Positions 42,021-54,155 of a stretch of DNA of 64,000 nucleotides are shown in pieces; within the stretch, counting starts at the first letter, position 1; every line of letters begins with the position of its first letter. The stretch comes from Flavobacterium branchiarum. GTDB taxonomy: Bacteria > Bacteroidota > Bacteroidia > Flavobacteriales > Flavobacteriaceae. The stretch spans positions 1,302,001 to 1,366,000 of the forward strand of contig NZ_JAUFQQ010000005.1 in NCBI RefSeq assembly GCF_030409845.1, given 5' to 3'. The notes beneath the pieces were generated by a model. The model worked only from the letters and a program-made list of their open reading frames with translations, made no database searches and was not told the origin of the DNA. The translations under genes were made by a program, and so were the position numbers.

Positions 42021-42437
42021 ATGAAAAAAATCTGGCTTTTACCCCTGTTTATCATCTTACTAGTATCTTGCAGCAATAGCCGTGAGAGAACCAAGAACCC
42101 AAATATTCCAAATTATTCGGTGAATCTTACTGTAGATACAAATTTACCTTTGTATAGTAACTTAAAATTTCCTAGCAGTCCTGTTTACATTCCTAATTAT
42201 GGTGCAAAAGGTATAATTATAATGAGAACTGGCGAAGGAACGTATAATGCTTTTGATGCCGCCTGCCCCAATCAAGCCTTAGCAAGTTGCAAAGCTATGA
42301 CTGTTGATGGTATAATGGCCGTTTGCTCTTGCGATAAAAGCAAGTACAATCTATATACAGGATTAGGCGATCTTGAGTATCCTATGAAACAATATCGTGT
42401 CGACGCCGCCGGAAATGTATTGCGCATCTACAATTAA
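42021..42437 (+). CDS. Rieske-fold-like lipoprotein with altered cluster ligands
   Basis: 138 residues. Lipoprotein signal LLPLFIILLVSC. The C-terminal ~75 residues follow the Rieske pattern: YNAFDAACPNQALASC ... GIMAVCSCDKSKYNLYTGLGD...YPMKQYRVDAAGNVLRIYN, as in CPH...C-C-x-x-H-x-x-F-D-x-x-T-G. The two histidine ligands are replaced by Asn (CPN) and Asp or Lys (CSCDKSK), so a normal [2Fe-2S] cluster is unlikely. Four cysteines remain and could bind another metal or pair. Confidence 0.75.
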   Translation: MKKIWLLPLFIILLVSCSNSRERTKNPNIPNYSVNLTVDTNLPLYSNLKFPSSPVYIPNYGAKGIIIMRTGEGTYNAFDAACPNQALASCKAMTVDGIMAVCSCDKSKYNLYTGLGDLEYPMKQYRVDAAGNVLRIYN

Positions 42438-42497: not shown

Positions 42498-45170
42498 TTA
42501 AAGTTTATAGTTTACCGAAAACAGAATAGCTCTAGGCAAAATATATGTATTTTGCTCACTGATCATATAATCCGAAAAGGAATAGCTGTTTTTATTTTTT
42601 ACATCAAACAAATTATTAACTGATAGTTCAAAACCAAATGGGTTATTTTTCTTTTGATAAAAAAGTGATGTATTTGCTATATCATAGAAATTAGATTGTT
42701 TAACATTATTTGTATTTTTTAAATACTCATAATCTATTTTATATGTCCAAAACTTCAAAATTGTTATTTCGAATGCAGTTTTTAGGACATCTGTTTGATA
42801 TTTAGATTTTGTCAAACCTGAAAACTCACTAAAACCTTTCTCATAACCTATACTCAAATCTGGCCATTTTCTAAAGACTGTTTTTAAAACTAACCCTACA
42901 TTCTGACTATTTCTTTCATTGTTTGTGGTAACATCATTTAGAGTCTGAGAATATTTAAACAATGACAGCCTTGTATTAAATTTTAAATTAAATCGATAAA
43001 TTTTTTTAGATACAGAACCCGTAAAACCAGCATTAGTCTCTGGATTATCTGTTAAAATCGGAGTATTGAATTGGTCTATACCATCCAATTGAACTTCGTT
43101 TCTAATTACTTTTACTTTCTTAGAATAATTTAATATTCCGTTCCAGATAATTCCTCTATAAGAATTTATTTTTGAGTATCGTAAACTTGCCGAATGGTAT
43201 TTTTCATTTTCTAACAATGCATTTCCTTTATATACTGCATTGTAAAATTCTAAAGTATATCTATCTGCTAGTTGATTTACGCTAGGGAATTTATTTTCCA
43301 ACTTATAAACAAAACTTAAGGTTTCAGACTTATTAAACTCGTAATCACTATTCCATTGTGGTTGAAACAATGCTTTGGAAACAGTATTACTACCGCTATT
43401 TTGATTTGTAATTAAATGGTACCAATGCAAATAAAGCCCTGGCTTATTTATCCATTTACCTATCTTAAACTTATATTCAACGCCAACATAAGCATCATTT
43501 AATTTGTAGCTAATATCATTACCAAAGCCCGCAGTTGCAAAATCATTAATAGAACCATTTGTTAAAATTTGTTTCTCGGATGTTATGAAATTAGATTTCT
43601 CAAAATTATTACCAACATTAGTATATAAATGATTGGAATTATTGATAATCCAATAATGTTTAAAAAGAGCATCTATACTATTTACCTCAGATTTTTTTAC
43701 TTGATTAATCGTATAACTTTCATCTTTAATTAATGGTATTAGCCCTTGTAAGAAGGGTTGATCTGTAAACCAGTTATTTGTTGGAGTAATTTTATCATAA
43801 GCCTGATTGACCACAAAAGTTGTTGTATGATGTGCATTATGACTTTTATGCCATTCGATATATTGTTTAACTGATGCGTTATCTGCTTTATTGATTGTTT
43901 CAAAAACACTGGAACCTAAATTAGTAACAGAATTCAAAACGCTTTTTAAATCGTTAGTACTAGACTGATATTGCCCGTTATAATACCATTTTTCTTTATT
44001 AGTGGGAGAATAATCTAATTTTATATTCCCTATTCCTAATACAGTGGTATTATCGGCATTCCTTATTTTATTTTCATAATCAACGGTACTATTGCTATTC
44101 AAATATTCAATGTTATTATCAATTCTTGAAACTGTAAAAACTTTAGAAAGTATTCCGAACCCGGATACGATAAGTTTTGGTGAAAAATCATGACTAAAAT
44201 TAAAAGCACTAAATTGTGATTTACTTTGAACTACATCTGTATTATCTTTAGCTAAAGAATATAAGTTTGTTAATTGTTTTCGACCTGAAAGAAAACTACT
44301 AAAACCTCCACCAAAACGCATTAAATCATCAAAAGCAAAAGTGCTTTTCCCAACATTATTGGCATCACCGATAAAACTAAAATTTGTTTTTGGAGCATAA
44401 TAGAACAAAGAAGCGTGAGCTAAATAAAAACCGTTATCTCCTGCCCCTGCCTCGACACCAGCTTGTAAATCTCCAAAAACAAATTTTTTCTTATCTTCTT
44501 TTAGCTTTACATTAATAGCCAAATCATCACTGTCTGAGACTTGCTTCATAAATCCAACTTCGTTAAAATTGTCAATTACTTCAATTTTATCCAATGCATT
44601 CGCTGGAATGTTCTCTACCGCGAGTTTAGTGCCACCACCAAAGAATGATTTCCCCTCCACCAACATTTTAGTTACTGGTTTTCCCTGAACTGTAACGTTA
44701 CCTTTTTTATCAACCTCAACACCAGGAAGTTTTTCTAGAATTTCTTTCATTTTGCGCTCATTACCATTCGAAAAGGCTTTGACGTCAAAAATCAGAGTGT
44801 CTTTTTTTACTATAATTGGCTTAAAATCATGTTTAATCACAATTTCCTTAAGATTTTCTCCCGAAAATTTTAATTTAAAATCATGTGATTTTTTTTCAGA
44901 TTCAGGTTCTAAAATAAAGACTTCTTCTAAGAACCCAATATAAGAAACTGTGATTTCGTATTTTACATTTTTTTCGAGCTCTAATCTATAGCGCCCTTTA
45001 TTATCTGCAATAGCAAATTTTAGGCTGGCTTTTTCTTGCAATGGTTTTGCAATTACATTAGAAGATTCTAGGGGCTTATTAGTTTCGTCAGAAACTATGC
45101 CTTCAAATGTTTTCGTTTGGGAAAATGAAAAAACAGAATAGAAAAATAAAAGTAGTACGAGTTTATTCAT
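42498..45170 (-). CDS. TonB-dependent-receptor-like outer membrane protein with carboxypeptidase-like domain
   Basis: 890 residues from ATG 45170 (MNKLVLLLFFYSVFSFSQ, a signal peptide); an in-frame start at 45203 adds an unlikely 11 residues. Residues about 20-105 are a carboxypeptidase-D regulatory-like beta domain (FEGIVSDETNKPLESSNVIA...KGRYRLELEKNVKYEITVSYIGF). A plug-like region follows (ILEKLPGVEVDKKGNVTVQG...AVENIPANALDKIEVIDNF), then a long beta-barrel. No TonB box is obvious. It closes the run of GLPGLI genes and probably works with them at the cell surface. Confidence 0.88.
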   Translation of the reverse strand: MNKLVLLLFFYSVFSFSQTKTFEGIVSDETNKPLESSNVIAKPLQEKASLKFAIADNKGRYRLELEKNVKYEITVSYIGFLEEVFILEPESEKKSHDFKLKFSGENLKEIVIKHDFKPIIVKKDTLIFDVKAFSNGNERKMKEILEKLPGVEVDKKGNVTVQGKPVTKMLVEGKSFFGGGTKLAVENIPANALDKIEVIDNFNEVGFMKQVSDSDDLAINVKLKEDKKKFVFGDLQAGVEAGAGDNGFYLAHASLFYYAPKTNFSFIGDANNVGKSTFAFDDLMRFGGGFSSFLSGRKQLTNLYSLAKDNTDVVQSKSQFSAFNFSHDFSPKLIVSGFGILSKVFTVSRIDNNIEYLNSNSTVDYENKIRNADNTTVLGIGNIKLDYSPTNKEKWYYNGQYQSSTNDLKSVLNSVTNLGSSVFETINKADNASVKQYIEWHKSHNAHHTTTFVVNQAYDKITPTNNWFTDQPFLQGLIPLIKDESYTINQVKKSEVNSIDALFKHYWIINNSNHLYTNVGNNFEKSNFITSEKQILTNGSINDFATAGFGNDISYKLNDAYVGVEYKFKIGKWINKPGLYLHWYHLITNQNSGSNTVSKALFQPQWNSDYEFNKSETLSFVYKLENKFPSVNQLADRYTLEFYNAVYKGNALLENEKYHSASLRYSKINSYRGIIWNGILNYSKKVKVIRNEVQLDGIDQFNTPILTDNPETNAGFTGSVSKKIYRFNLKFNTRLSLFKYSQTLNDVTTNNERNSQNVGLVLKTVFRKWPDLSIGYEKGFSEFSGLTKSKYQTDVLKTAFEITILKFWTYKIDYEYLKNTNNVKQSNFYDIANTSLFYQKKNNPFGFELSVNNLFDVKNKNSYSFSDYMISEQNTYILPRAILFSVNYKL

Positions 45171-45235
45171 TTTTTTGTTATTTAACCAGATCATAGCAAT
45201 CATTTTCTCTTGGTTGTTTCGTAGAGAGATAAGAC

Positions 45236-45976
45236 TTATTTTTCACTATCTCTTTTTTTACTCAATCTTATTGCACCTGCACTGTTTTGTGATTTCTGCT
45301 TGTATTCTTTTTTTGTTACCGATTTTCCTTTTGGAAAAATAATATCCAAATATTCTTTCTCGATGGTGATTTTAGTTGCAATAAAAGTGGTTAACTTATC
45401 AGCTACCAGTTCTAAAATAAGCCCTGGCAATCCACAAAACTCTTTGGGGCCAAAAGAATACGGCAAACTAGGCGCAAACCAAGCTTCCGTTTTTGAAATT
45501 CTTGATTCCCCATATCTATTAACATAAGGCGTACTTAGAATTGCTTTATAACACAAATAATTGCCTATTTTTTTTGATTCGTTTAAAATTTCCCAATTTT
45601 TATTAATACTATCATGAACCAAAGTTCCATCGTGCATTTTTCTCAACTCGATGTTAGCGCTTAAATTAATATATACATCGTCAGCAGAAGTATAGGATAA
45701 TTTTGCTAACGTATTTGTTTTTTCATCAAAACTTGGATCAGAATTCAAACTCTCAATATTTTTAAAACTTGATTCATTTTTGTTAAATCTTAATTCAAAT
45801 TGTTGCTTTCTTGCATACTCTATTGATTTTTGAAATAATTCAGCCCATTCGCCTGTTAATTCAGACTTAGCTTTATCATCATCTATGATATTTAATTGTA
45901 TCGAATAGACAACGATACCTGATTGTGCAAATAAAAGATTTGTAAATAGTAGTAAGAAATAAAATGTGTTTTTCAT
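45236..45976 (-). CDS. GLPGLI-family protein, copy 1 of tandem trio
   Basis: 246 residues. Signal peptide MKNTFYFLLLFTNLLFAQ; core IVVYSIQLNIIDDDKAK, INLSANIELRKMHDGTL, NWEILNESKKIGNYLCYKAI, EAWFAPSLPYSFGPKEFCGLPGLILELVAD carrying the family signature, then KEYLDIIFPKGKSVTKKEY. The function of the family is unknown. It is the most diverged of the three tandem copies and the one directly upstream of the TonB-type gene. Confidence 0.92.
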   Translation of the reverse strand: MKNTFYFLLLFTNLLFAQSGIVVYSIQLNIIDDDKAKSELTGEWAELFQKSIEYARKQQFELRFNKNESSFKNIESLNSDPSFDEKTNTLAKLSYTSADDVYINLSANIELRKMHDGTLVHDSINKNWEILNESKKIGNYLCYKAILSTPYVNRYGESRISKTEAWFAPSLPYSFGPKEFCGLPGLILELVADKLTTFIATKITIEKEYLDIIFPKGKSVTKKEYKQKSQNSAGAIRLSKKRDSEK

Positions 45977-45984
45977 AAATAATA

Positions 45985-46060
45985 TTATTTTTCGAGCTCT
46001 AATCTGTAGAGCTTTTTATTATCTGTAAAAGCAAATTTTAGGCTGGCTTTTTCTTGGTTG
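45985..46060 (-). pseudogene. Fragment of the TonB-type gene in the GLPGLI spacer (1)
   Basis: The spacer between GLPGLI copies 1 and 2 contains TTTTTCGAGCTCTAATCT and AAATTTTAGGCTGGC, matching 44975-45030 inside the carboxypeptidase-like domain of the adjacent TonB-type gene. It then jumps to CTTGGTTGTTTCGTAGAGAG, matching 45211-45230 upstream of that gene. It is a residue of the duplication event. Confidence 0.8.
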
Positions 46061-46079
46061 TTTCGTAGAGAGATAAAAC

Positions 46080-46820
46080 TTATTTTTCACTATCCCTCAT
46101 TTTACTCAATCTTATTACACCTTCACTGTTTTGTAGTTTCTCCTTGTATTCTTTTTTTGTTACCGATTTCCCTTTTGGAAAAGTAATATCCAAATATTCT
46201 TTTTCAATGGTGATTTTAGTTGCAATAAAAGTGGTTGCCCTATCTGCTAACAGTTCTAAAATAAGTCCTGGCAATCCACAAAACTCTTTGGGGCCAAAAG
46301 AATAAGGCAAACTGGGCGCAAACCAAGCTTCCGTTTTTGAAATTCTTGATTCCCCACTTCCATTAATAAAGGGTCTACTTAGAATTGCTTTGTAACACAA
46401 ATAATCGCCTATTTTTTTTGATTCGTTTAAAATTTCCCAATTTTTATTAATACTATCACGAACCAAAATTCCATCGCGCATTTTTCGCAACTCGATGTTA
46501 GTGCTTAAATTAATGTATACATCGTCAGCAGAAGTATAGATTGATTTAGCTAATGAAATTATTGATTCATCAAAATTTGAATCAGAATTCAAACTCTCAA
46601 TATTTTTAAAACTTGATTGATTCTTGTTAAATCTCAATTCAAATTGTTGCTTTATTGCATACTCTTTTATTTTTCGATCTGTTTCAACCCAATAGTCTGT
46701 TAATTTAGACTTCATTTTTTCATTTCCTGTAGTGTCTAATTGTATCGAATAGACAACAATACCTGATTGTGCAAATAGAAAATTTGTAAATAGTAGTAAG
46801 AAATAAAATATGTTTTTCAT
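46080..46820 (-). CDS. GLPGLI-family protein, copy 2 of tandem trio
   Basis: 246 residues, nearly identical over long stretches to the copies on both sides; for example FGPKEFCGLPGLILELLADRATTF and the shared signal peptide MKNIFYFLLLFTNFLFAQ. Differences cluster at about residues 30-55 (DTTGNEKMKSKLTDYWVETD) and 70-85. It lies exactly 844 bp from copy 1 and from copy 3. Unknown function; secreted or outer-membrane-associated. Confidence 0.92.
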   Translation of the reverse strand: MKNIFYFLLLFTNFLFAQSGIVVYSIQLDTTGNEKMKSKLTDYWVETDRKIKEYAIKQQFELRFNKNQSSFKNIESLNSDSNFDESIISLAKSIYTSADDVYINLSTNIELRKMRDGILVRDSINKNWEILNESKKIGDYLCYKAILSRPFINGSGESRISKTEAWFAPSLPYSFGPKEFCGLPGLILELLADRATTFIATKITIEKEYLDITFPKGKSVTKKEYKEKLQNSEGVIRLSKMRDSEK

Positions 46821-46828
46821 AAATAATA

Positions 46829-46900
46829 GTATTTTTCGAGCTCTAACCGATAACGTTCTTTGCTATCAGCAATAGCAAATTTTAGGCTGGCTTTTTCTTG
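46829..46900 (-). pseudogene. Fragment of the TonB-type gene in the GLPGLI spacer (2)
   Basis: The second spacer has TTTTTCGAGCTCTAACCGAT, CAATAGCAAATTTTAGGCTG and then TTCTTGGTTGTTTCGTAGAG. It shares the junction with the first spacer, showing both arose from one founding rearrangement. Confidence 0.8.
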
Positions 46901-46923
46901 GTTGTTTCGTAGAGAGATAAAAT

Positions 46924-47664
46924 TTATTTTTCACTATCCCTTTTTTTACTCAACAATATTGCACCTGCACTGTTTTGTAATTTCTCCTTGTATTCTTTTT
47001 TTGTTACCGATTTTCCTTTTGGAAAAGTAATATCCAAATATTCTTTCTCGATGGTGATTTTAGTTGCAATAAAAGTGGTTAACTTATCAGCTACCAGTTC
47101 TAAAATAAGCCCAGGCAAACCACAAAACTCTTTGGGACCAAAAGAATACGGCAAACTGGGCGCAAACCAAGCTTCCGTTTTTGAAATTCTTGATTCCCCA
47201 CTTCTATTAATAAAGGGCCTACTTAGAATTGCTTTGTAACACAAATAATCGCCTATTTTTTTTGATTCGTTTAAAATTTCCCAATTTTTATTAATACTAT
47301 CACGAACCAAAATTCCATCGCGCATTTTTCTCAACTCAATGTTAGTGCTTAAATTAATGTATACATCGTCAGCAGAAGTATAGAGTGCTTTTGCTAATGA
47401 ATTTATTTTACCATCAAAATTTGAATCAGAATTCAAACCCTCAATATTTTTAAAACTTGATTGATTCTTGTTAAATCTCAATTCAAATTGTTGCTTAGTC
47501 GCATACTCTTTCATTTTTTCAAATGTATCTAACCATTCGCCTGTTAATCCTGACTTCATTTCTTCATTTCCTATAGTATCTAATTGTATCGAATAAACAA
47601 CGATGCCTGATTGTGCAAATAGAAAATTTGTAAATAGTAGTAAGAAATAAAATATGTTTTTCAT
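46924..47664 (-). CDS. GLPGLI-family protein, copy 3 of tandem trio
   Basis: 246 residues. Same organisation as copies 1 and 2 with signature FCGLPGLILELVADKLTTF. The variable segment near residues 30-50 reads DTIGNEEMKSGLTGEWLDTF. It is first of the three in transcription order and follows the two-cysteine peptide at 47731 by 66 bp, so peptide, three GLPGLI proteins and TonB-type protein form one directional block. Confidence 0.92.
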   Translation of the reverse strand: MKNIFYFLLLFTNFLFAQSGIVVYSIQLDTIGNEEMKSGLTGEWLDTFEKMKEYATKQQFELRFNKNQSSFKNIEGLNSDSNFDGKINSLAKALYTSADDVYINLSTNIELRKMRDGILVRDSINKNWEILNESKKIGDYLCYKAILSRPFINRSGESRISKTEAWFAPSLPYSFGPKEFCGLPGLILELVADKLTTFIATKITIEKEYLDITFPKGKSVTKKEYKEKLQNSAGAILLSKKRDSEK

Positions 47665-47730
47665 AAATAATAATGTTATGCATTAAAAAACACTACCAAA
47701 TTTATTTTGATAGTGTTTTAATTTATTCGT

Positions 47731-47982
47731 TTAATGACACTTTGCTATAAGCTCATTTAAAAGATTAATATCTTCTTCTTTGTCTTGCACTTTAAGACTC
47801 TTTACATAAAGATCGATTGCAGCAAGTTCACAAGCTCTAACTTCATCCCCACCATAAAAGACTTTAATTTTATTTTCTAGGATTGTTGCCCCTTTTACTT
47901 CAACACCTACCTCAAGGGTATTTGCCATCGAAACTCCACAAAACGCTACCACTGCCAGAGCGGTAAATACTAATTTCTTCAT
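47731..47982 (-). CDS. Small secreted two-cysteine peptide, variant A
   Basis: 83 residues. Signal peptide MKKLVFTALAVVAFCGVSMA is almost identical to that of the peptide at 49630, but the mature part differs (LEVGVEVKGATILENKIKVF ... ACELAAIDLYVKSLKVQDKE ... LIAKCH). It has two mature cysteines and ends Cys-His. No family is named here. It precedes the GLPGLI trio as its counterparts precede their GLPGLI genes. Confidence 0.8.
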   Translation of the reverse strand: MKKLVFTALAVVAFCGVSMANTLEVGVEVKGATILENKIKVFYGGDEVRACELAAIDLYVKSLKVQDKEEDINLLNELIAKCH

Positions 47983-48284
47983 AATTAAATTGGTTTAAAT
48001 TTATATGCTTTTTTTTGGTTAACCATTATAAATATCATAAATAATTAACACAAAAAGAAACATGGCTTCGTTTAATTAACAATTAATTAACATTACGATA
48101 CTTGCTAAATTAACATTTGACCATCATTACATTGTTTAACATATTAACTCACAAGTGATTATACTTAATTATTGTTAAAAAACAAATATAACTTACAAAA
48201 CATCTAGGATATGTAATAAAATATCTCATTAATGTATGATTAAAATCAAATAAATCTGAAAGTTTAAACCTTTTTTTATTTCTT
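47983..48284. other. AT-rich intergenic region upstream of peptide A
   Basis: No gene. Just upstream of the peptide are segments shared with the other two peptide genes, including GGTTAACCATTATAAATATC and ATTAATTAAC stretches. These probably hold the promoter, though no TAnnTTTG was found. A decayed TCTGAAAGTTTAAACC element near 48256 resembles half of the terminator at 51915-51949. Confidence 0.5.
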
Positions 48285-48440
48285 AAAATTCTTTTCAAAA
48301 TCTCAAAGTCAATTCTGCTAAAAAGTTAATTCTTACTTGAAGATAAGACGCTGGAGAAATATCCAACATATCTTCGTTTGAAACATATTTTCAAACCGAA
48401 TATTAGATATAAACCTGTAATAAAAAATTGATTTTTTGGA
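48285..48440 (-). pseudogene. Remnant of a TonB-receptor 3' end, unit A
   Basis: The plus strand reads CTCAAAGTCAATTCTGCTAA, AAGTTAATTCTTACTTGA and GAAATATCCAACATA, matching with many changes the 3' end of the intact TonB receptor gene (from 51975 on). It contains frameshifts and no start. A cognate remnant is at 50155. Confidence 0.8.
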
Positions 48441-48600
48441 TTTAAAAGAAGGGGAATATTTAACACTAAACTCAAAATATAAACTTGATTTTTAGCAACT
48501 ATTTTTGCTTCTAACATTAATCTAGTTCCTTCATCCTTTATTGTTTTCTTATGTACTGGCAATAAAGGCGTATAAGAGATACTACCCGATTTTCTAGATT
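48441..48600 (-). pseudogene. Unidentified reading-frame remnant, unit A
   Basis: The minus strand can be read as PLLPVHKKTIKDEGTRLMLE then AKIVAKNQVYILSLVLNIPL, protein-like but with no recognised family. The frame runs on at its 3' end into the receptor remnant at 48285-48440. A copy is present about 1.86 kb away (50310-50465). Confidence 0.4.
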
Positions 48601-48612
48601 CTATGAACTATT

Positions 48613-48783
48613 TTATCTCGGTATAAAAGTTGAATTTTTCATATACTCATCAACTGTAATAACTTTGCCTTTTGGAAATTTAATCTCAATTGGATGCTGC
48701 TTTATATCTATGCTTTTTATAATCGTTGTAGTTCCTTTATCTACATCAAATAGCTCTAATACCAAACCGGGTAAGCCAATAGT
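48613..48783 (-). pseudogene. GLPGLI-family C-terminal fragment, unit A
   Basis: The minus strand encodes TIGLPGLVLELFDVDKGTTT followed by a segment with IKFPKGKVITVDEYMKN and a stop. This is the C-terminal third of a GLPGLI protein including its signature. A stop codon lies immediately upstream, so the first two thirds are gone. Confidence 0.85.
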
Positions 48784-48851
48784 TTAAACAGAAAGTTATT
48801 TTATCGAAACAAAAAAAACACAAAATTGTTTCTAATTTAACATACAAATCC

Positions 48852-49568
48852 TTATTTTCTTAAATTATTAATATTATTATCGTTCGTTTTCTCGACTATT
48901 TTATAAAAGTCATCCTGCGAAATTATTTTCCCTTCTATTTTATTAATTTTAATTTTTAATTTTTTACTAATCTCTATTCTTGAAGCTAAATAAATCATTT
49001 TATCATCTTGTAATTCTAATATTAAACCTGGCAATCCACCAAATCCTTTTGGTCCAAAATTCATTGGAATAGTAGGACAATACCATGCAATTACTTTTGC
49101 AACATTATCTGTTTTTTTTAACCAAATCTTCCTTTCAGTGATTGCTTTATAACATTTGTAACCATTAATTAATTTTGTTTCATTAACTAATTCCCATTCT
49201 TTATTTATATCTCCCCAAACATTGAAAAATTCTCCTGAAAATTCGATAACCTCTATTAATTCTTTTTTATCATTATCTCTATAATACTCCTTACGACCAG
49301 CGAAAGACCTTGCTAATCTTGCAGCCCTTTCATTAAAATCAAGATTTGCGATTAAATGAAAATAGGAATTATTATTACTTACCAACAACTCATATTCTAA
49401 TTTTTTTATAGCATCATCAACGCCATTAAACGAAACACTCAGTTTCTTTAAAGCTTCTCTATTTTCTATTGATCCATCAGTTGGCAAAACTATATAATTT
49501 ACTTTGGCTAGATTTTGTGCTGTTAGTGCAAAAGAAAAGAAGATAAAAACAATATATATATATTTCAT
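48852..49568 (-). CDS. GLPGLI-family protein, unit A
   Basis: 238 residues. Signal peptide MKYIYIVFIFFSFALTAQ; core YIVLPTDGSIENREAL, YELLVSNNNSYFHL, WELVNETKLINGYKCYKAI, IAWYCPTIPMNFGPKGFGGLPGLILELQDDKM. It is nearly identical to the protein at 50716 and clearly distinct from the trio at 45-47.7 kb. It follows the peptide gene at 49630 by 61 bp. Unknown function. Confidence 0.92.
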   Translation of the reverse strand: MKYIYIVFIFFSFALTAQNLAKVNYIVLPTDGSIENREALKKLSVSFNGVDDAIKKLEYELLVSNNNSYFHLIANLDFNERAARLARSFAGRKEYYRDNDKKELIEVIEFSGEFFNVWGDINKEWELVNETKLINGYKCYKAITERKIWLKKTDNVAKVIAWYCPTIPMNFGPKGFGGLPGLILELQDDKMIYLASRIEISKKLKIKINKIEGKIISQDDFYKIVEKTNDNNINNLRK

Positions 49569-49629
49569 ACAATTTAATTTTAATCCGTTTAGATATATGA
49601 CCTAAACGGATTATTAATATCAATAAATT

Positions 49630-49851
49630 TTAGTGCCCCATACACTCTTTATAAGCTGCCCAAGCTTCGCCAGGAGCATCATAGTCAAAACCCTGGCTTG
49701 CAAATTCTATATATGTTGCATGATACACTCCAATACAATAATCACCTACAAGAAAAGAAGAATCCATCTCAGATTCTATATTATTTGTATTTGCCATCGA
49801 AACCCCACTAAACGCTACCACTGCCAGAGCGGTAAATACTAATTTCTTCAT
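49630..49851 (-). CDS. Small secreted two-cysteine peptide, variant B
   Basis: 73 residues. Signal peptide MKKLVFTALAVVAFSGVSMA, then a short acidic stretch and SSFLVGDYCIGVYHATYIEF ... EAWAAYKECMGH. Two cysteines lie about 30 residues apart; the last is four residues from the end and followed by Met-Gly-His. It precedes a GLPGLI gene by 61 bp and likely shares its transcript. Confidence 0.82.
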   Translation of the reverse strand: MKKLVFTALAVVAFSGVSMANTNNIESEMDSSFLVGDYCIGVYHATYIEFASQGFDYDAPGEAWAAYKECMGH

Positions 49852-50154
49852 AATTAAATTGGTTTAAATTTATAAGTTTTTTCGGTTAACCATTATAAAT
49901 ATCGCAAATAATTAACGCAAAAAAGAATACATCTTTGTTAATTTAACAATTAATTAACATGTGTGCGCTTATTAAATTAACATTTACTCATCGACACATC
50001 ATTCAACATGTTAAATTACAGGTAATTACATTTAACAATTACTAAAAAACAGATATAACTCACAAAAAAGTAAAAAATATTAAAAAAATACCTTGTTAAT
50101 ATGAAATTGAAACCAAATAAGTCTGAAAGTTTAAATCTTTTTTATTTCATAAAA
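49852..50154. other. AT-rich intergenic region upstream of peptide B
   Basis: Homologous to the region upstream of peptide A (GGTTAACCATTATAAATATC is shared) and to that upstream of the third peptide copy. No gene is visible. The conserved segment just upstream of the peptide is the likely promoter. Confidence 0.5.
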
Positions 50155-50305
50155 AAACTTTAAACTTTCAGAGTCAATCCTACTAAGTAGTCAATTCTTG
50201 CTTGAGGATAAGGCGCTAGATAAATATCCAACATAGCTTTGTTTGAAGCATATTTGGTGTCCAAAATATTATTTAGAAAACCTGTAATAAAAAATTGATT
50301 TTTGG
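50155..50305 (-). pseudogene. Remnant of a TonB-receptor 3' end, unit B
   Basis: The plus strand has TTCAGAGTCAATCCTACTAA and TTCTTGCTTGAGGATAAGGC, similar to 51980-52030 in the intact receptor and to 48300-48350. Truncated, no start. Confidence 0.8.
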
Positions 50306-50477
50306 ATTTAAACAAAAGGGATTATTTAACACTAACCTCAAAATACAAACTTGATTTTTAGCAACTATTTTTGCTTCTAACATTAATCTAGTTCCTTCAT
50401 CCTTTATTGTTTTCTTATATACTGGCAATAAAGACGTATAAGAGATACTACCCGATTTTCTAGATTCTATGAACTAT

Positions 50478-50648
50478 TTTATCTCGGTATAAAAGTTGAA
50501 TTTTTCATATACTCATCAACTGTAATAACTTTGCCTTTTGGAAATTTAATCTCAATTGGATGCTGCTTTATATCTATGCTTTTTATAATCGTTGTAGTTC
50601 CTTTATCTACATCAAATAGCTCTAATACCAAACCGGGTAAGCCAATAG
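50478..50648 (-). pseudogene. GLPGLI-family C-terminal fragment, unit B
   Basis: Same sequence as the fragment at 48613-48783, shifted by 1,865 bp, with the same flanking stop codons and signature GLPGLVLEL. Its near identity shows the fragment existed before the unit was duplicated. Confidence 0.85.
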
Positions 50649-50715
50649 TTTAAACAGTAAATTGTTTTGTCGAAACAAAAATGACAAAACTGATTCTGAT
50701 TTGATATACAAATAC

Positions 50716-51432
50716 TTATTTTGGTAAAATATTGATATTATAATCGTTCGTTTTCTCGACTATTTTATAAAAGTCATCCTTCGAAATTATTTTCCCTTCT
50801 ATTTTTTTAATTTTAATTTTTAATTTTTCACTAATCTCTATTCTTGAAGCTAAATAAATCATTTTACTATCTTGTAATTCTAATATTAAACCTGGTAATC
50901 CACCAAATCCTTTTGGTCCAAAATTCATTGGAATAGTAGGACAATACCATGCAATTACTTTTGCAACATTATCTGTTTTTTTCAACCAAATCTTCCTTTC
51001 AGTGATTGCTTTATAACATTTATAACCATTAATTAATTTTGTTTCATTAACTAATTCCCATTCTTTATTTATATCTCCCCAAACATTGAAAAATTCTCCT
51101 GAAAATTCGATAACCTCTATTAATTCTTTTTTATCATTATCTCTATAATACTCCTTACGACCAGCGAAAGACCTTGCTAATCTTGCAGCCCTTTCATTAA
51201 AATCAAGATTTGCGATTAAATGAAAATAGGATTTATTATTACTTACCAACAACTCATATTCTAATTTTTTCATAGCATCATCAACGCCATTAAACGAAAT
51301 CCTCAGTTCATTTAAAGCTTCTCTTTTTTCTATTGATCCATCAGTTGGCAAAACTATATAATTTACTTTGGCTAGATTTTGAGCTGTTAATGCAAAAGAA
51401 AAGAAGACAAAAACAATATATATATATTTCAT
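50716..51432 (-). CDS. GLPGLI-family protein, unit B
   Basis: 238 residues, differing from the unit A protein at only a small number of positions (for example KREALNELRISFNGVDDAM, QDSKMIYL, and the C-terminal NDYNINILPK). Signal peptide and signature GFGGLPGLILELQD are intact. It lies exactly 1,864 bp from its twin. The peptide gene in front of it is a pseudogene, so its expression may differ. Confidence 0.92.
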   Translation of the reverse strand: MKYIYIVFVFFSFALTAQNLAKVNYIVLPTDGSIEKREALNELRISFNGVDDAMKKLEYELLVSNNKSYFHLIANLDFNERAARLARSFAGRKEYYRDNDKKELIEVIEFSGEFFNVWGDINKEWELVNETKLINGYKCYKAITERKIWLKKTDNVAKVIAWYCPTIPMNFGPKGFGGLPGLILELQDSKMIYLASRIEISEKLKIKIKKIEGKIISKDDFYKIVEKTNDYNINILPK

Positions 51433-51493
51433 TAAATTTAATTTTAATCCGTTTAGATATTTAACCCAAACGGATTATTAATACCAATAAATT

Positions 51494-51702
51494 TTAGTGT
51501 CCCATACACACTTTATAAGCTGCCCAAGCTTCGCTAGAAGCATCATGTTCAAAACCCTCGTTTACAAATTCTATATTTATATCATGATACACTGCAATGC
51601 AATAATCACCTACAAGAAAAGAAGAATCCATCACAGATTCTATATTAATTGTATTTTTCATTAATAACCCACTGAAGATTAGCACTGTTAAAGTGGTAAA
51701 TA
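51494..51702 (-). pseudogene. Small two-cysteine peptide gene, third copy, start codon deleted
   Basis: The mature part (SSFLVGDYCIAVYHDINIEF ... EAWAAYKVCMGH) matches variant B, but the first 14 bases of the gene, including ATG, are missing relative to the intact copy (the plus strand goes from GGTAAAT straight to AATTAAATT). The remaining signal region is also altered. An internal ATG gives only a peptide without a signal sequence. Confidence 0.8.
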
Positions 51703-51914
51703 ATTAAATTGATTTAAAATCATGTCCTGTTTTGTTAACCATTATAAATATCATAAACAATTAACGCAATAAGAAGTATAAACATATTAAATTAACCGTT
51801 AATTAACAAATGCATGCTTACTAAATTAACAAACAATAACCATACACTAAATGTACTTCACGAAAAATGCATTAATCCCAAAGAAAATATATTATTTGTA
51901 TTCCATTAAAACCA

Positions 51915-51971: not shown

Positions 51972-54155
51972 TTAAAATTTCAAAGTCAATCCTGCTAAGA
52001 AGTTAATTCCTGCTTGAGGATAATACGCTGGATAAATATCCCACATAGCTCCATTTGAAACATATTTTTTGTCCAGAATATTATTTACCAATCCTGTAAT
52101 CAGAATTGATTTAAAAATAGATTTTGGTTTTATCTCATAAGAGACATTAAAATCATTTACAAAATAATCCGCTAATTTAGCTTCTGGCAACTCTATATTG
52201 TTCATGTATTGTTCTCCAACAAATTTCTGCAATAAGGAAAGATGCAAACTCTTAATCGGACTATAAACTATAATATTTCCAACGATTACTGACGGAGAAT
52301 AGGCAATATCTGTTGTTCCGTAATTTTGACCTTCAACAGCCAAATCAACATTTTTATTACTGCTTAATGTAAAGTTTGGTCGAATTAAGAATTTTTCAGA
52401 CAATTTAATCGTCGCATCAACTTCTAACCCTAAACGGTAACTTTTATCCGTATTAGAGCGTATTGGCGCACCAACATCATCTAATCTTCCTGTTAGAATT
52501 AATTGATCTTTATATCCCATATAATAAACATTCGAGCTCAATTGAAATTTCTCTGAATTAAATCTCCAGCCTAATTCAAAATCATTTAATTTCTCAGGCT
52601 TGACATTTCCTCCTTCGTAATCGGTTCTGTTTGGCTCACGATTAGCTCTTGCATACGAAAAATACAAAGTGCTATTTTGATTTAGTTCATAATTTAAACC
52701 CGCTTTTGGGTTAAAGAAATTAAAAGTATCATCGACTACACCCGTATCATAACTGTTCGCTTTATAAGTAACTCGTCTGTATTGTAAATCTCCGTAAAAA
52801 CTTAATTTTTCTGTAACTTGATAATTCGCTTTCGCAAAAACATTTCCATCGGTCTTTGCCGAATAATCATCATAATAATGATCTCCTAACTCTACCTTTC
52901 CCATGTTTCGTGCCCAGATAACTTTTCCGAAATGATCGCCTTCGTACTTATTCCAGCCTCCACCCAAAATAACATCTAACTTATCGTCTTTATATTTTAC
53001 AGAAAAAGTGGTTCCGTAAAAGTCATTATCTAACCATTTCTGACGAATTAAATCTGTACCTGGAACTAATTCTCCTTTATCGTTTTCAACCATTTTAGTA
53101 GGCTCAATTCCTCCATAACCTTCAACAGCCGTGTTGTATTTATAATTCTCATAATAGCCCAATCCCTTAGTATAATGGAATGCTAAGTTTGTACTCCATT
53201 TATCAGAAACAGATTCGCTCCAATGCAACTGGTAATGGTCTTGCTTGTAATTATCGGTTTCATTATCATAAAAATGAACATTTCCAGCTTCATCTTTATA
53301 CTTTCCTGCAGAGTTATAAGTTCGGTCAGTATTTAGTTTTTCAGCATCAATTCCGTTCCAAGATTGATATGTTCTTTGATTTCCACCAAATACCAATGCT
53401 TTAATTAAAGTCGTTTTACCTACATAAGTTCCTTGCAAGAAATAAGATTTTAGATCTGAGCTTGCTCTATCCACATAACCATCCGATTTTATTACAGACA
53501 AACGTCCTGCGATTTCAAAATGATCATTTAATAAACCTGTACTAAACTTTACATTATGCTTATGAGAATTGAAACTACCGAAGGAATTTGAGATTTCTCC
53601 ATTGCCTTTTGAAGCATAATTATCTGTTAGCATATTTAAGCTGGCTCCAAAAGCTCCTGAACCATTTGTAGAAGTTCCAACACCACGCTGTAATTGCAGA
53701 CTCTCTACAGAAGAAGCAAAATCGGGCATATTAACCCAAAATGTACCTTGGCTTTCAGAATCATTATACGGAATCCCGTTGATGGTAACATTTACTCTTG
53801 TTGCATCGCTACCACGCACTCTAATACCGGTATATCCCATACCGTTTCCTGCATCGGAAGTAGTAACTACTGAAGGTAAATAATTCATTAAAATAGGAAT
53901 GTCTTGACCTAAATTTCTAAATTTGATTTCCTTTTTATCCATATTACTGAAGGAAACAGGCGTTTTTGTAGTAACACGAACTGCAGAAACCAAAACATCA
54001 TCAAGTTTATTGACTTTGGTTGTGTCTTGTACTTGTGCAAAAGAAAAAACAGAATAGAAGAAAGAGAATAGAAAAAAAAGAGATGGCTTATAGTTTTTCA
54101 ACTTTGAACCTTTGTGACATAGTACCTCAGTACTTTTTTGAAAAATAGTTTTCAT
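51972..54155 (-). CDS. TonB-dependent receptor, TPP-riboswitch controlled (thiamine uptake candidate)
   Basis: 727 residues. A signal region ends FFYSVFSFAQ. The plug domain is complete (DDVLVSAVRVTTKTPVSFSN ... GIRVRGSDATRVNVTINGIPYNDSESQGTFWVNMPDFASSVESLQLQRGVGTSTNGSGAFGASLNM), followed by a 22-strand-type barrel ending in an aromatic residue (AGLTLKF). The upstream TPP riboswitch assigns it to thiamine or thiamine-precursor import across the outer membrane, as for the OMR1 receptors described in Bacteroidota. pnuC nearby supports this. Confidence 0.9.
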   Translation of the reverse strand: MKTIFQKSTEVLCHKGSKLKNYKPSLFFLFSFFYSVFSFAQVQDTTKVNKLDDVLVSAVRVTTKTPVSFSNMDKKEIKFRNLGQDIPILMNYLPSVVTTSDAGNGMGYTGIRVRGSDATRVNVTINGIPYNDSESQGTFWVNMPDFASSVESLQLQRGVGTSTNGSGAFGASLNMLTDNYASKGNGEISNSFGSFNSHKHNVKFSTGLLNDHFEIAGRLSVIKSDGYVDRASSDLKSYFLQGTYVGKTTLIKALVFGGNQRTYQSWNGIDAEKLNTDRTYNSAGKYKDEAGNVHFYDNETDNYKQDHYQLHWSESVSDKWSTNLAFHYTKGLGYYENYKYNTAVEGYGGIEPTKMVENDKGELVPGTDLIRQKWLDNDFYGTTFSVKYKDDKLDVILGGGWNKYEGDHFGKVIWARNMGKVELGDHYYDDYSAKTDGNVFAKANYQVTEKLSFYGDLQYRRVTYKANSYDTGVVDDTFNFFNPKAGLNYELNQNSTLYFSYARANREPNRTDYEGGNVKPEKLNDFELGWRFNSEKFQLSSNVYYMGYKDQLILTGRLDDVGAPIRSNTDKSYRLGLEVDATIKLSEKFLIRPNFTLSSNKNVDLAVEGQNYGTTDIAYSPSVIVGNIIVYSPIKSLHLSLLQKFVGEQYMNNIELPEAKLADYFVNDFNVSYEIKPKSIFKSILITGLVNNILDKKYVSNGAMWDIYPAYYPQAGINFLAGLTLKF

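What the first reader, a model, noticed from the sequence alone, without database searches (positions are those of the whole stretch)
42498..51702. GLPGLI - two-cysteine peptide - TonB cassette: candidate undescribed envelope system
The repeated order is small secreted peptide, then GLPGLI protein(s), then a TonB-type outer-membrane protein or its remnant. Five intact GLPGLI genes, two fragments and three peptide genes are present. The peptides share one signal peptide but have different mature parts, both ending near Cys-His. A conserved leader with a variable mature region, a dedicated periplasmic partner and an outer-membrane barrel suggests a secreted or surface-displayed peptide with a cognate handling system. 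No function is known for GLPGLI proteins.
Basis: partly seen in the sequence, partly recalled or inferred. Interest (0 to 1): 0.8.

Follow-up and report, generated by a model that had tools for sequence, protein, structure and literature searches.

The report
Diverse peptides paired with GLPGLI partners
In this Flavobacterium chromosome and in many of its relatives, genes for small, highly variable two-cysteine peptides that are predicted to be secreted lie directly in front of GLPGLI genes of matching type, followed by one gene for a predicted outer-membrane protein; together they likely carry the peptides out of the cell, which would give the GLPGLI proteins a first testable job.

Summary
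The "TonB remnants" are not partners but scars of a ~1866-bp tandem duplication that copied the 3' end of the upstream TonB receptor gene.

Across Flavobacteriaceae the peptide-GLPGLI pairing is specific. In 78 loci fetched by GLPGLI alone, 89 of 181 GLPGLI genes have a small signal-peptide-like ORF with two or more cysteines directly upstream, against 1 of 387 other genes. In a search blind to GLPGLI, 13 of 14 examined loci with a full-length peptide match outside the genus have GLPGLI within 1.5 kb. Mature peptides vary with the GLPGLI downstream of them (r 0.52), not with the one upstream (r 0.08). The predicted peptide is an acidic helical hairpin with two cysteines. The GLPGLI model matches the N-terminal bowl domain of PNGase F-II and, weakly, LolA/RseB/MucB half-barrels.

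Best reading: GLPGLI is a peptide-specific periplasmic carrier and the shared outer-membrane protein the gate. Secretion, binding and effect are untested; toxin-immunity is the main rival.

The parts
42498..45203 (-). CarboxypepD_reg-type outer-membrane protein (OMP), last gene of the array; proposed gate
   Evidence: 901-aa ORF; PF13715/PF13620 E about 1e-7, just under cut-off here, over cut-off in 7 of 8 relatives; a homologue lies within 600 bp downstream in 63 of 68 non-edge peptide-bearing arrays
45236..45976 (-). GLPGLI protein 1 (844-bp tandem copy)
   Evidence: TIGR01200 130.6 bits, cut-off 50; repeat D1
46080..46820 (-). GLPGLI protein 2 (844-bp tandem copy)
   Evidence: TIGR01200 in genome search; repeat D1
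46924..47664 (-). GLPGLI protein 3, directly downstream of peptide 1
   Evidence: TIGR01200 in genome search; repeat D1
47687..47719 (-). 14-bp RNA hairpin between peptide 1 and its GLPGLI gene
   Evidence: fold of the junction, -15.1 kcal/mol
47731..47982 (-). peptide 1 gene (83 aa; Sec-type leader, two cysteines in the mature part)
48018..48115 (-). repeated upstream block in front of peptide 1
   Evidence: repeat family D7, 79% to the reference copy
48274..48391 (-). duplication scar: copy of the 3' end of the upstream TonB receptor gene
   Evidence: repeat family D6
48613..48765 (-). GLPGLI fragment (50 aa)
   Evidence: within the 1866-bp repeat (D4)
48852..49568 (-). GLPGLI protein 4, downstream of peptide 2; the protein modelled
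   Evidence: TIGR01200 127.0 bits; model mean pLDDT 87.5
49581..49613 (-). 14-bp RNA hairpin between peptide 2 and its GLPGLI gene
   Evidence: fold of the junction, -16.3 kcal/mol
49630..49851 (-). peptide 2 gene (73 aa; Sec-type leader, two cysteines)
   Evidence: model pLDDT about 95 over residues 41-70, mean 74.2 over the whole chain
49885..49982 (-). repeated upstream block in front of peptide 2
   Evidence: repeat family D7, reference copy
50139..50256 (-). duplication scar: copy of the 3' end of the upstream TonB receptor gene
   Evidence: repeat family D6
50479..50631 (-). GLPGLI fragment (50 aa), same protein sequence as 48613-48765
   Evidence: D4
50716..51432 (-). GLPGLI protein 5, next to the broken peptide 3
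   Evidence: TIGR01200 128.3 bits
51445..51477 (-). 14-bp RNA hairpin between peptide 3 and its GLPGLI gene
   Evidence: fold of the junction, -16.9 kcal/mol
51494..51685 (-). peptide 3 remnant: mature part open, leader and start broken
51734..51831 (-). repeated upstream block in front of peptide 3
   Evidence: repeat family D7, 78% to the reference copy

Best explanation
The window holds an array of cassettes, each a gene for a small two-cysteine peptide predicted to be secreted followed by a GLPGLI gene, closed by one gene for a predicted CarboxypepD_reg-type outer-membrane protein; the GLPGLI protein likely binds its own peptide in the periplasm and would hand it to that outer-membrane protein for release or display outside the cell. 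Shown by sequence: gene order, close linkage, matched variation of peptide and downstream GLPGLI, one OMP per array, an RNA hairpin at the peptide-GLPGLI junctions, gain or loss of whole cassettes between close genomes. Predicted: Sec export, hairpin fold with one disulfide, bowl/half-barrel fold of GLPGLI. Inferred and untested: binding, direction of transport through the OMP, and that the diverse peptides act on neighbouring cells as competition or recognition molecules. The diversity likely arises by exchange and duplication of cassettes at the repeated leader and upstream sequences.
Against: No experiment shows secretion, disulfide, binding or export; signal peptides were called by a simple hydrophobicity rule. 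LolA/RseB/MucB similarity is at a Z (7-8) that can be a common arrangement; only the PNGase F-II bowl match stands clear, and that domain has no known function (PMC9522356, passage). The OMP does not reach the Plug cut-off in any of 9 proteins scanned, so TonB dependence is unproved. Matched inheritance shows that cassettes travel as units; it does not by itself prove binding, and with close pairs removed the downstream correlation falls to 0.22-0.12 (upstream about -0.02). OMP similarity also correlates with peptide similarity (r 0.27, 0 of 1000 shuffles as high). In many loci the peptide start or leader is damaged while GLPGLI stays open, as expected of toxin loss with immunity kept. Other same-strand junctions often have hairpins too (74 of 125), and a looser hairpin count does not separate the sets (93 of 99 against 110 of 128). 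In the window itself the broken peptide 3 against peptide 2 shows dN above dS.
Confidence: 0.5

Rival explanations
1. Toxin and immunity: the peptide is a narrow-spectrum bacteriocin and GLPGLI is its periplasmic immunity protein; the OMP is either the exporter or the receptor by which the toxin enters kin.
For: Cognate pairing and high variability; where a GLPGLI gene with room upstream was scored as lacking a peptide, 36 of 60 still show peptide sequence, by eye mostly with a damaged or unusual start or leader; 119 of 119 intact peptides have GLPGLI sequence downstream (loci partly chosen for this); close genomes differ by whole cassettes.
Against: GLPGLI stands next to the same OMP type in genomes and loci without any peptide, so immunity cannot be its general job; the peptides are acidic (median net charge -7), unusual for membrane-acting bacteriocins (recalled). 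Two peptides of L072 look intact beside GLPGLI reading frames that look broken. No killing data.
Confidence: 0.27
2. Scavenging or signalling: the peptide goes out, binds a metal, nutrient or kin cue, and the OMP brings it back in, with GLPGLI as the periplasmic binding protein that receives it.
For: The OMP resembles TonB-type proteins in its N-terminal domain; GLPGLI has a bowl-like predicted fold; acidic two-cysteine peptides could bind metals (inference).
Against: A shuttle for one ligand should not need such diversity or several different peptides per array sharing one OMP; apart from the two cysteines no side chain is conserved across the mature parts of the 54 aligned peptides.
Confidence: 0.13
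3. Envelope plug or receptor guard: the peptide stays in the periplasm, binds the OMP or GLPGLI and modulates it, for example to block phages or colicin-like proteins.
For: Fixed neighbourhood of peptide, GLPGLI and OMP; high variability suits an arms race.
Against: The peptide varies with GLPGLI and hardly with the OMP once GLPGLI is accounted for; no match of two peptides, one GLPGLI protein and the OMP in the PADLOC defence models.
Confidence: 0.06
4. Nothing but a tandem duplication of a fast-evolving family with spurious short ORFs.
For: Two tandem duplications explain the repeated order inside this window.
Against: The same order with unrelated mature sequences recurs at other loci and in other genera; dN<dS in 28 of 31 peptide comparisons.
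Confidence: 0.03

Closest known systems
GLPGLI family (TIGR01200; Pfam PF09697 Porph_ging)
   Same: Three of the five window proteins were scanned and pass both cut-offs; all five hit TIGR01200 over the cut-off
   Different: The peptide-linked proteins lie in a shorter clade (median 241 aa) apart from the best-scoring canonical members (median 282 aa), which have no two-cysteine signal-peptide ORF upstream in 62 of 64 genes. I found no function or partner in print: full-text search for GLPGLI gave 3 papers, seen as passages only
N-terminal bowl-like domain of PNGase F-II (PF22252)
   Different: No N-glycanase domain is attached (the ORFs end after about 240 aa); that domain itself has no known function (PMC9522356, passage)
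LolA / RseB / MucB half-barrel carriers
   Same: Weaker fold resemblance; entries include LolA with a lipoprotein and MucB with the periplasmic part of MucA (titles)
Oar and PopC secretion in Myxococcus xanthus
   Same: An outer-membrane protein with a CarboxypepD_reg domain is needed for release of a periplasmic protein (PMC6434023, passages)
   Different: Plug and barrel cut-offs are not reached here; cargo is a small peptide with its own partner protein
Bacteroidetocins
   Same: Small cysteine peptides of the same phylum
   Different: They have a double-glycine leader, four cysteines, a peptidase/transporter and thiol oxidoreductase gene nearby and no obvious immunity protein (PMC6671954, passages); here Sec-type leader, mostly two cysteines, and a GLPGLI partner
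Type XI secretion (Slam/DUF560) with soluble cargo
   Same: One outer-membrane protein encoded with the cargo it exports (PMC8406197, passages)
   Different: No DUF560 row among the Pfam matches of the window OMP; structurally known cargo there carries a C-terminal eight-stranded barrel

Membership tests
GLPGLI family TIGR01200 | whole-protein score over the curated cut-off of 50 bits | tested here: met
   127.0-130.6 bits for the three window proteins scanned; all five over the cut-off in the genome search
PNGase F-II N-terminal domain PF22252 | whole-protein score over the Pfam gathering score of 27.6 | tested here: not met
   26.2, 24.2 and 17.6 bits; many relatives carry the domain in the precomputed column
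PNGase F-II N-terminal domain PF22252 | bowl-like fold | tested here: met
LolA/RseB-type carriers | half-barrel fold clearly above unrelated folds | tested here: inconclusive
Oar-type TonB-dependent transporter | N-terminal CarboxypepD_reg domain | tested here: met
   E about 1e-7 but just under cut-off in the window OMP; over the cut-off of PF13715 or PF13620 in 7 of 8 relatives
Oar-type TonB-dependent transporter | plug domain PF07715 and TonB-type barrel | tested here: inconclusive
   Plug E 0.03-0.24 in 7 of 9 OMPs, no Plug row in the other 2, never over cut-off; barrel only in L058 (PF14905, E 1e-4, below cut-off)
Bacteroidetocin / class IIa-like peptides | double-glycine leader and four cysteines | tested here: not met
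   Sec-type leader without a double glycine in the window peptides; two cysteines in 69 of 109 distinct mature parts, four in 22
RiPP precursor | modification or processing enzyme gene beside the precursor | tested here: inconclusive
   only 1 of 142 neighbouring GLPGLI pairs has another ORF of 120 aa or more between them; flanking genes were mapped but not scanned by profile
Bacteriocin with immunity protein | peptide inhibits kin and the partner protects | not testable with these tools
   needs growth assays
Known anti-phage defence system | match to a PADLOC model | tested here: not met
   0 families for GLPGLI 4, both intact peptides and the OMP

The most novel reading that the evidence does not exclude
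A family-wide, previously undescribed export and display system in Flavobacteriaceae: a hypervariable acidic disulfide hairpin peptide, a peptide-specific GLPGLI carrier that evolved from an older GLPGLI-OMP pair, and one shared outer-membrane gate, with cassettes swapped at repeated leader sequences to change the peptide repertoire that neighbours meet.
Probability: 0.42. Interest if true: 0.92.

Novelty: categorically new. Interest (0 to 1): 0.84.

Why it matters
GLPGLI proteins are widespread in this phylum (51 of 198 sampled phylum genomes over the cut-off) and I found no function for them in print. A matched small peptide supplies a first concrete partner. It also exposes a large, mostly unannotated class of predicted secreted peptides whose diversity, pairing and cassette turnover look like the result of a biological conflict, and it turns the question of what GLPGLI does into a simple binding and release experiment.

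Tried and rejected
Idea that the upstream TonB receptor (51972-54155) belongs to the system: rejected. An ORF of like length, place and start stands upstream in syntenic genomes (L044, L045, L047, L050, L053, L055; judged by eye from the ORF maps, not by profile), none is seen in front of the arrays of L046, L052 and L058, and the window gene ends in its own terminator-like hairpin.

Idea that the leader itself marks the system: rejected. Partial, mostly leader-only matches occur away from GLPGLI (0 of 15 loci near GLPGLI).

Idea that every GLPGLI has a peptide: rejected. Canonical, best-scoring members have a two-cysteine signal-peptide ORF within 250 bp upstream in only 2 of 64 genes, and a tree puts 65 of 65 canonical rows outside the peptide-bearing clade, with 7 peptide-less rows of my other set among them (FastTree, midpoint root).

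Search outside the family: in 247 class genomes none of the 21 loci examined outside the own genome had GLPGLI within 1.5 kb. No plasmid match for peptide 2. Fold search with the peptide model: best E 6.3. Profile A3 hits designed alpha-hairpin toroids in the PDB, which I take as an artefact of shape. Profile A2 has no sequence match in the PDB at E 0.01. PHROGs: one match at E 0.097 of unknown function.

Looser hairpin counting did not separate peptide-GLPGLI junctions from other junctions; I rely on the z-scores.

Limits of the counts. 15 of the 97 loci were fetched because they hold a leader peptide; one search gives the GLPGLI-fetched loci apart. L044/L062 and L049/L063 are the same genomes. 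Of 16 full-length matches outside the genus, 14 had a locus and were examined. A3 has 54 rows: 48 of the 68 references with cysteine spacing 30-34 printed, and 6 database proteins; its invariant cysteines are thus partly by choice. The 31 peptide pairs (GLPGLI similarity 0.55 or more) share sequences, one genome appears twice, and one identical pair was dropped. The nearest GLPGLI is also the nearest peptide in 45 of 109. The 36 peptide remnants include at least three intact ATG genes that the first scan missed because the GLPGLI start was set too far upstream.
Full report
What is there. The window lies on contig C5 of a 5.0-Mb genome. The genus is Flavobacterium by inference: a contig of a same-genus genome (G004:C2, 379099 bases) has the same length and the same peptide as NZ_JSYP01000002.1 of Flavobacterium sp. 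KMS. On the minus strand, in transcription order: a TonB-type receptor (51972-54155), a peptide remnant, GLPGLI 5, a GLPGLI fragment, a receptor scar, peptide 2, GLPGLI 4, a fragment, a scar, peptide 1, GLPGLI 3, 2 and 1, and an OMP. Two tandem duplications explain the repetition inside the window: a unit of about 1866 bp that includes about the last 100 bp of the receptor gene, and an 844-bp unit. The first looks younger than the second (dS 0.05 between GLPGLI 4 and 5, 0.17-0.18 among GLPGLI 1-3).

The genome holds eight GLPGLI genes, five of them here. With the wider peptide profile it has four peptide genes, three here and one at C5:986062-986280, each next to a GLPGLI gene.

The pairing beyond this genome. 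Leader-peptide matches in 249 genomes of the genus fell in 15, the own one included. Outside the own genome, 23 of 25 matches have a same-strand GLPGLI gene within 500 bp downstream, one more at 569 bp; the last stops 3 bases from a contig end. A scan that starts from GLPGLI (78 loci) finds a small signal-peptide-like ORF with two or more cysteines within 200 bp upstream of 89 of 181 GLPGLI genes and of 1 of 387 other genes. Many GLPGLI genes counted as lacking a peptide either follow the gene before them too closely to hold one (gap under 150 bp in 51 of 108 with a measurable gap) or, where there is room, still show peptide sequence, often with an unusual or damaged start (36 of 60). A profile search that knows nothing of GLPGLI, in 199 Flavobacteriaceae genomes, gave 16 matches over the full peptide outside the genus; 14 loci were examined, 13 have GLPGLI within 1.5 kb, and the exception (L203) is an acidic ORF without the cysteine pair. 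Partial matches (15 loci) are never near GLPGLI.

Matched variation. Over 109 distinct peptide-GLPGLI pairs, similarity of mature peptides follows similarity of the GLPGLI protein downstream (r 0.546; rank correlation only 0.14, so the signal lies in the more similar pairs). Shuffling partners within each locus, which keeps relatedness of genomes, gives mean 0.339 and never reaches it in 2000 trials; leaders show it weakly if at all (0.205, reached by 214 of 2000). For 54 peptides that have GLPGLI on both sides, r is 0.52 with the downstream and 0.08 with the upstream gene; without close pairs it is 0.22 to 0.12 and about -0.02. So the unit is peptide plus the next GLPGLI. This shows common inheritance as a cassette; cognate binding is the simplest reason but is inferred. 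Among 33 arrays whose last GLPGLI has a peptide, the peptide varies little with the OMP once GLPGLI is held constant (partial r 0.11; plain r 0.27), which fits one shared gate served by several specific partners.

The peptide. Mature parts (counted from residue 21; median 61 aa, n 109) are acidic (median net charge -7; 7 of 109 positive), with two cysteines in 69, three in 16, four in 22 and five in 2; the commonest distance from first to last cysteine is 32. dN is below dS in 28 of 31 pairs (one reversed, two with saturated dS), and mature dN exceeds GLPGLI dN in 26 of 31 with one tie: constrained, likely translated, and changing faster than the partner. The window's peptide 2 against the broken copy 3 is different (dN 0.126, dS 0.086), as expected if the broken copy is drifting. 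The model of peptide 2 has mean pLDDT 74.2 and pTM 0.47, with two helices (31-52, 59-71) and pLDDT about 95 over residues 41-70; C39 and C70 would pair (inferred). Only 1 of 142 GLPGLI neighbour pairs has another ORF of 120 aa or more between them, so no modification enzyme sits inside the arrays.

RNA hairpin. The 97 distinct junctions of 30-140 nt between peptide and GLPGLI have a median folding z of -4.8 and a stem of 8 or more in 90; other junctions of GLPGLI genes have median z 0.1 and 10 of 53; other same-strand junctions have median z -1.2 and 74 of 125. In the junctions printed, the hairpin sequences differ from locus to locus. All three window junctions have 14-bp hairpins. Only 18 of 93 carry a T-run, so most are not plain terminators. 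A looser count of hairpins does not separate the sets (93 of 99 against 110 of 128). A higher level of peptide than GLPGLI transcript is the likely purpose; this is untested.

Cassette turnover. L108 (Flavobacterium turcicum) and L048 each hold one extra stretch of about 1.3-1.5 kb with a GLPGLI gene and peptide sequence relative to L050, with aligned flanks on both sides. Stretches near these borders also match the leader and upstream region of another peptide gene, as between peptides 1 and 2 of the window (96% over leader and 5' flank, unrelated mature parts).

Mechanism. I favour a peptide-specific carrier with a shared gate at about 0.5. Toxin with immunity protein is the main rival and could be true together with it, since a carrier that holds a toxin would also protect. 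GLPGLI kept beside damaged peptide genes speaks for immunity; peptide-less GLPGLI-OMP pairs speak for the carrier. Neither has been tested by experiment.

Literature. Full-text search for GLPGLI returned 3 papers; their passages give only expression changes or annotation: PhoP-dependent GLPGLI genes in Riemerella anatipestifer (PMC9603813), two changed in a Porphyromonas gingivalis mutant (PMC8757827) and a mention in a reannotation (PMC5771137). Searches for the Pfam and NCBIfam accessions and for secreted peptides with GLPGLI found nothing; searches for Flavobacterium bacteriocins and hypervariable secreted peptides were seen as capped listings only (8 of 8, 12 of 17 and 10 of 343 papers) and no title fits. 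Subscription journals and bioRxiv are not in that library, so absence from print is not established.

Noticed in passing
L045, L049 (same genome as L063), L061, L070, L076, L128: upstream of GLPGLI genes: Seven distinct peptide genes in six genomes have ATA where ATG is expected, with the rest of the frame open. Silent alleles or weak ATA starts; unexplained.
   Followed up: partly
L050, L108 and other loci: Other start or leader lesions in peptide genes (short A-run changes, stops) next to GLPGLI genes that stay open.
   Followed up: partly
L061:4716-7290 (own genome, C5 about 983.7-986.3 kb): A lone GLPGLI gene with an ATA-start peptide is followed on the same strand by a 440-aa ORF that looks like a transposase (by eye, not searched), so an OMP gene may have been lost there.
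   Followed up: no
L072:2328-3683 and downstream: Two intact peptides stand beside GLPGLI sequence that hits the profile in two or three frames, so GLPGLI looks broken there, the reverse of the usual pattern.
   Followed up: no
L164 (another family of the class): A GLPGLI gene of the canonical set is preceded by a 111-aa signal-peptide ORF with two cysteines that looks unlike the hairpin peptides; perhaps another kind of cargo.
   Followed up: no
L052, L056, L057, L065, L082: Two or more peptide genes in a row before one GLPGLI gene, sometimes with different leaders.
   Followed up: no
window 45988-46056 and 46832-46900: Pieces of the OMP 5' coding region (family D10) stand between the three tandem GLPGLI copies, scars of the 844-bp amplification.
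   Followed up: yes
window 42021-42437: Small lipoprotein-like protein with a sub-threshold Rieske match; a similar ORF stands beside the OMP in syntenic genomes (by eye).
   Followed up: no
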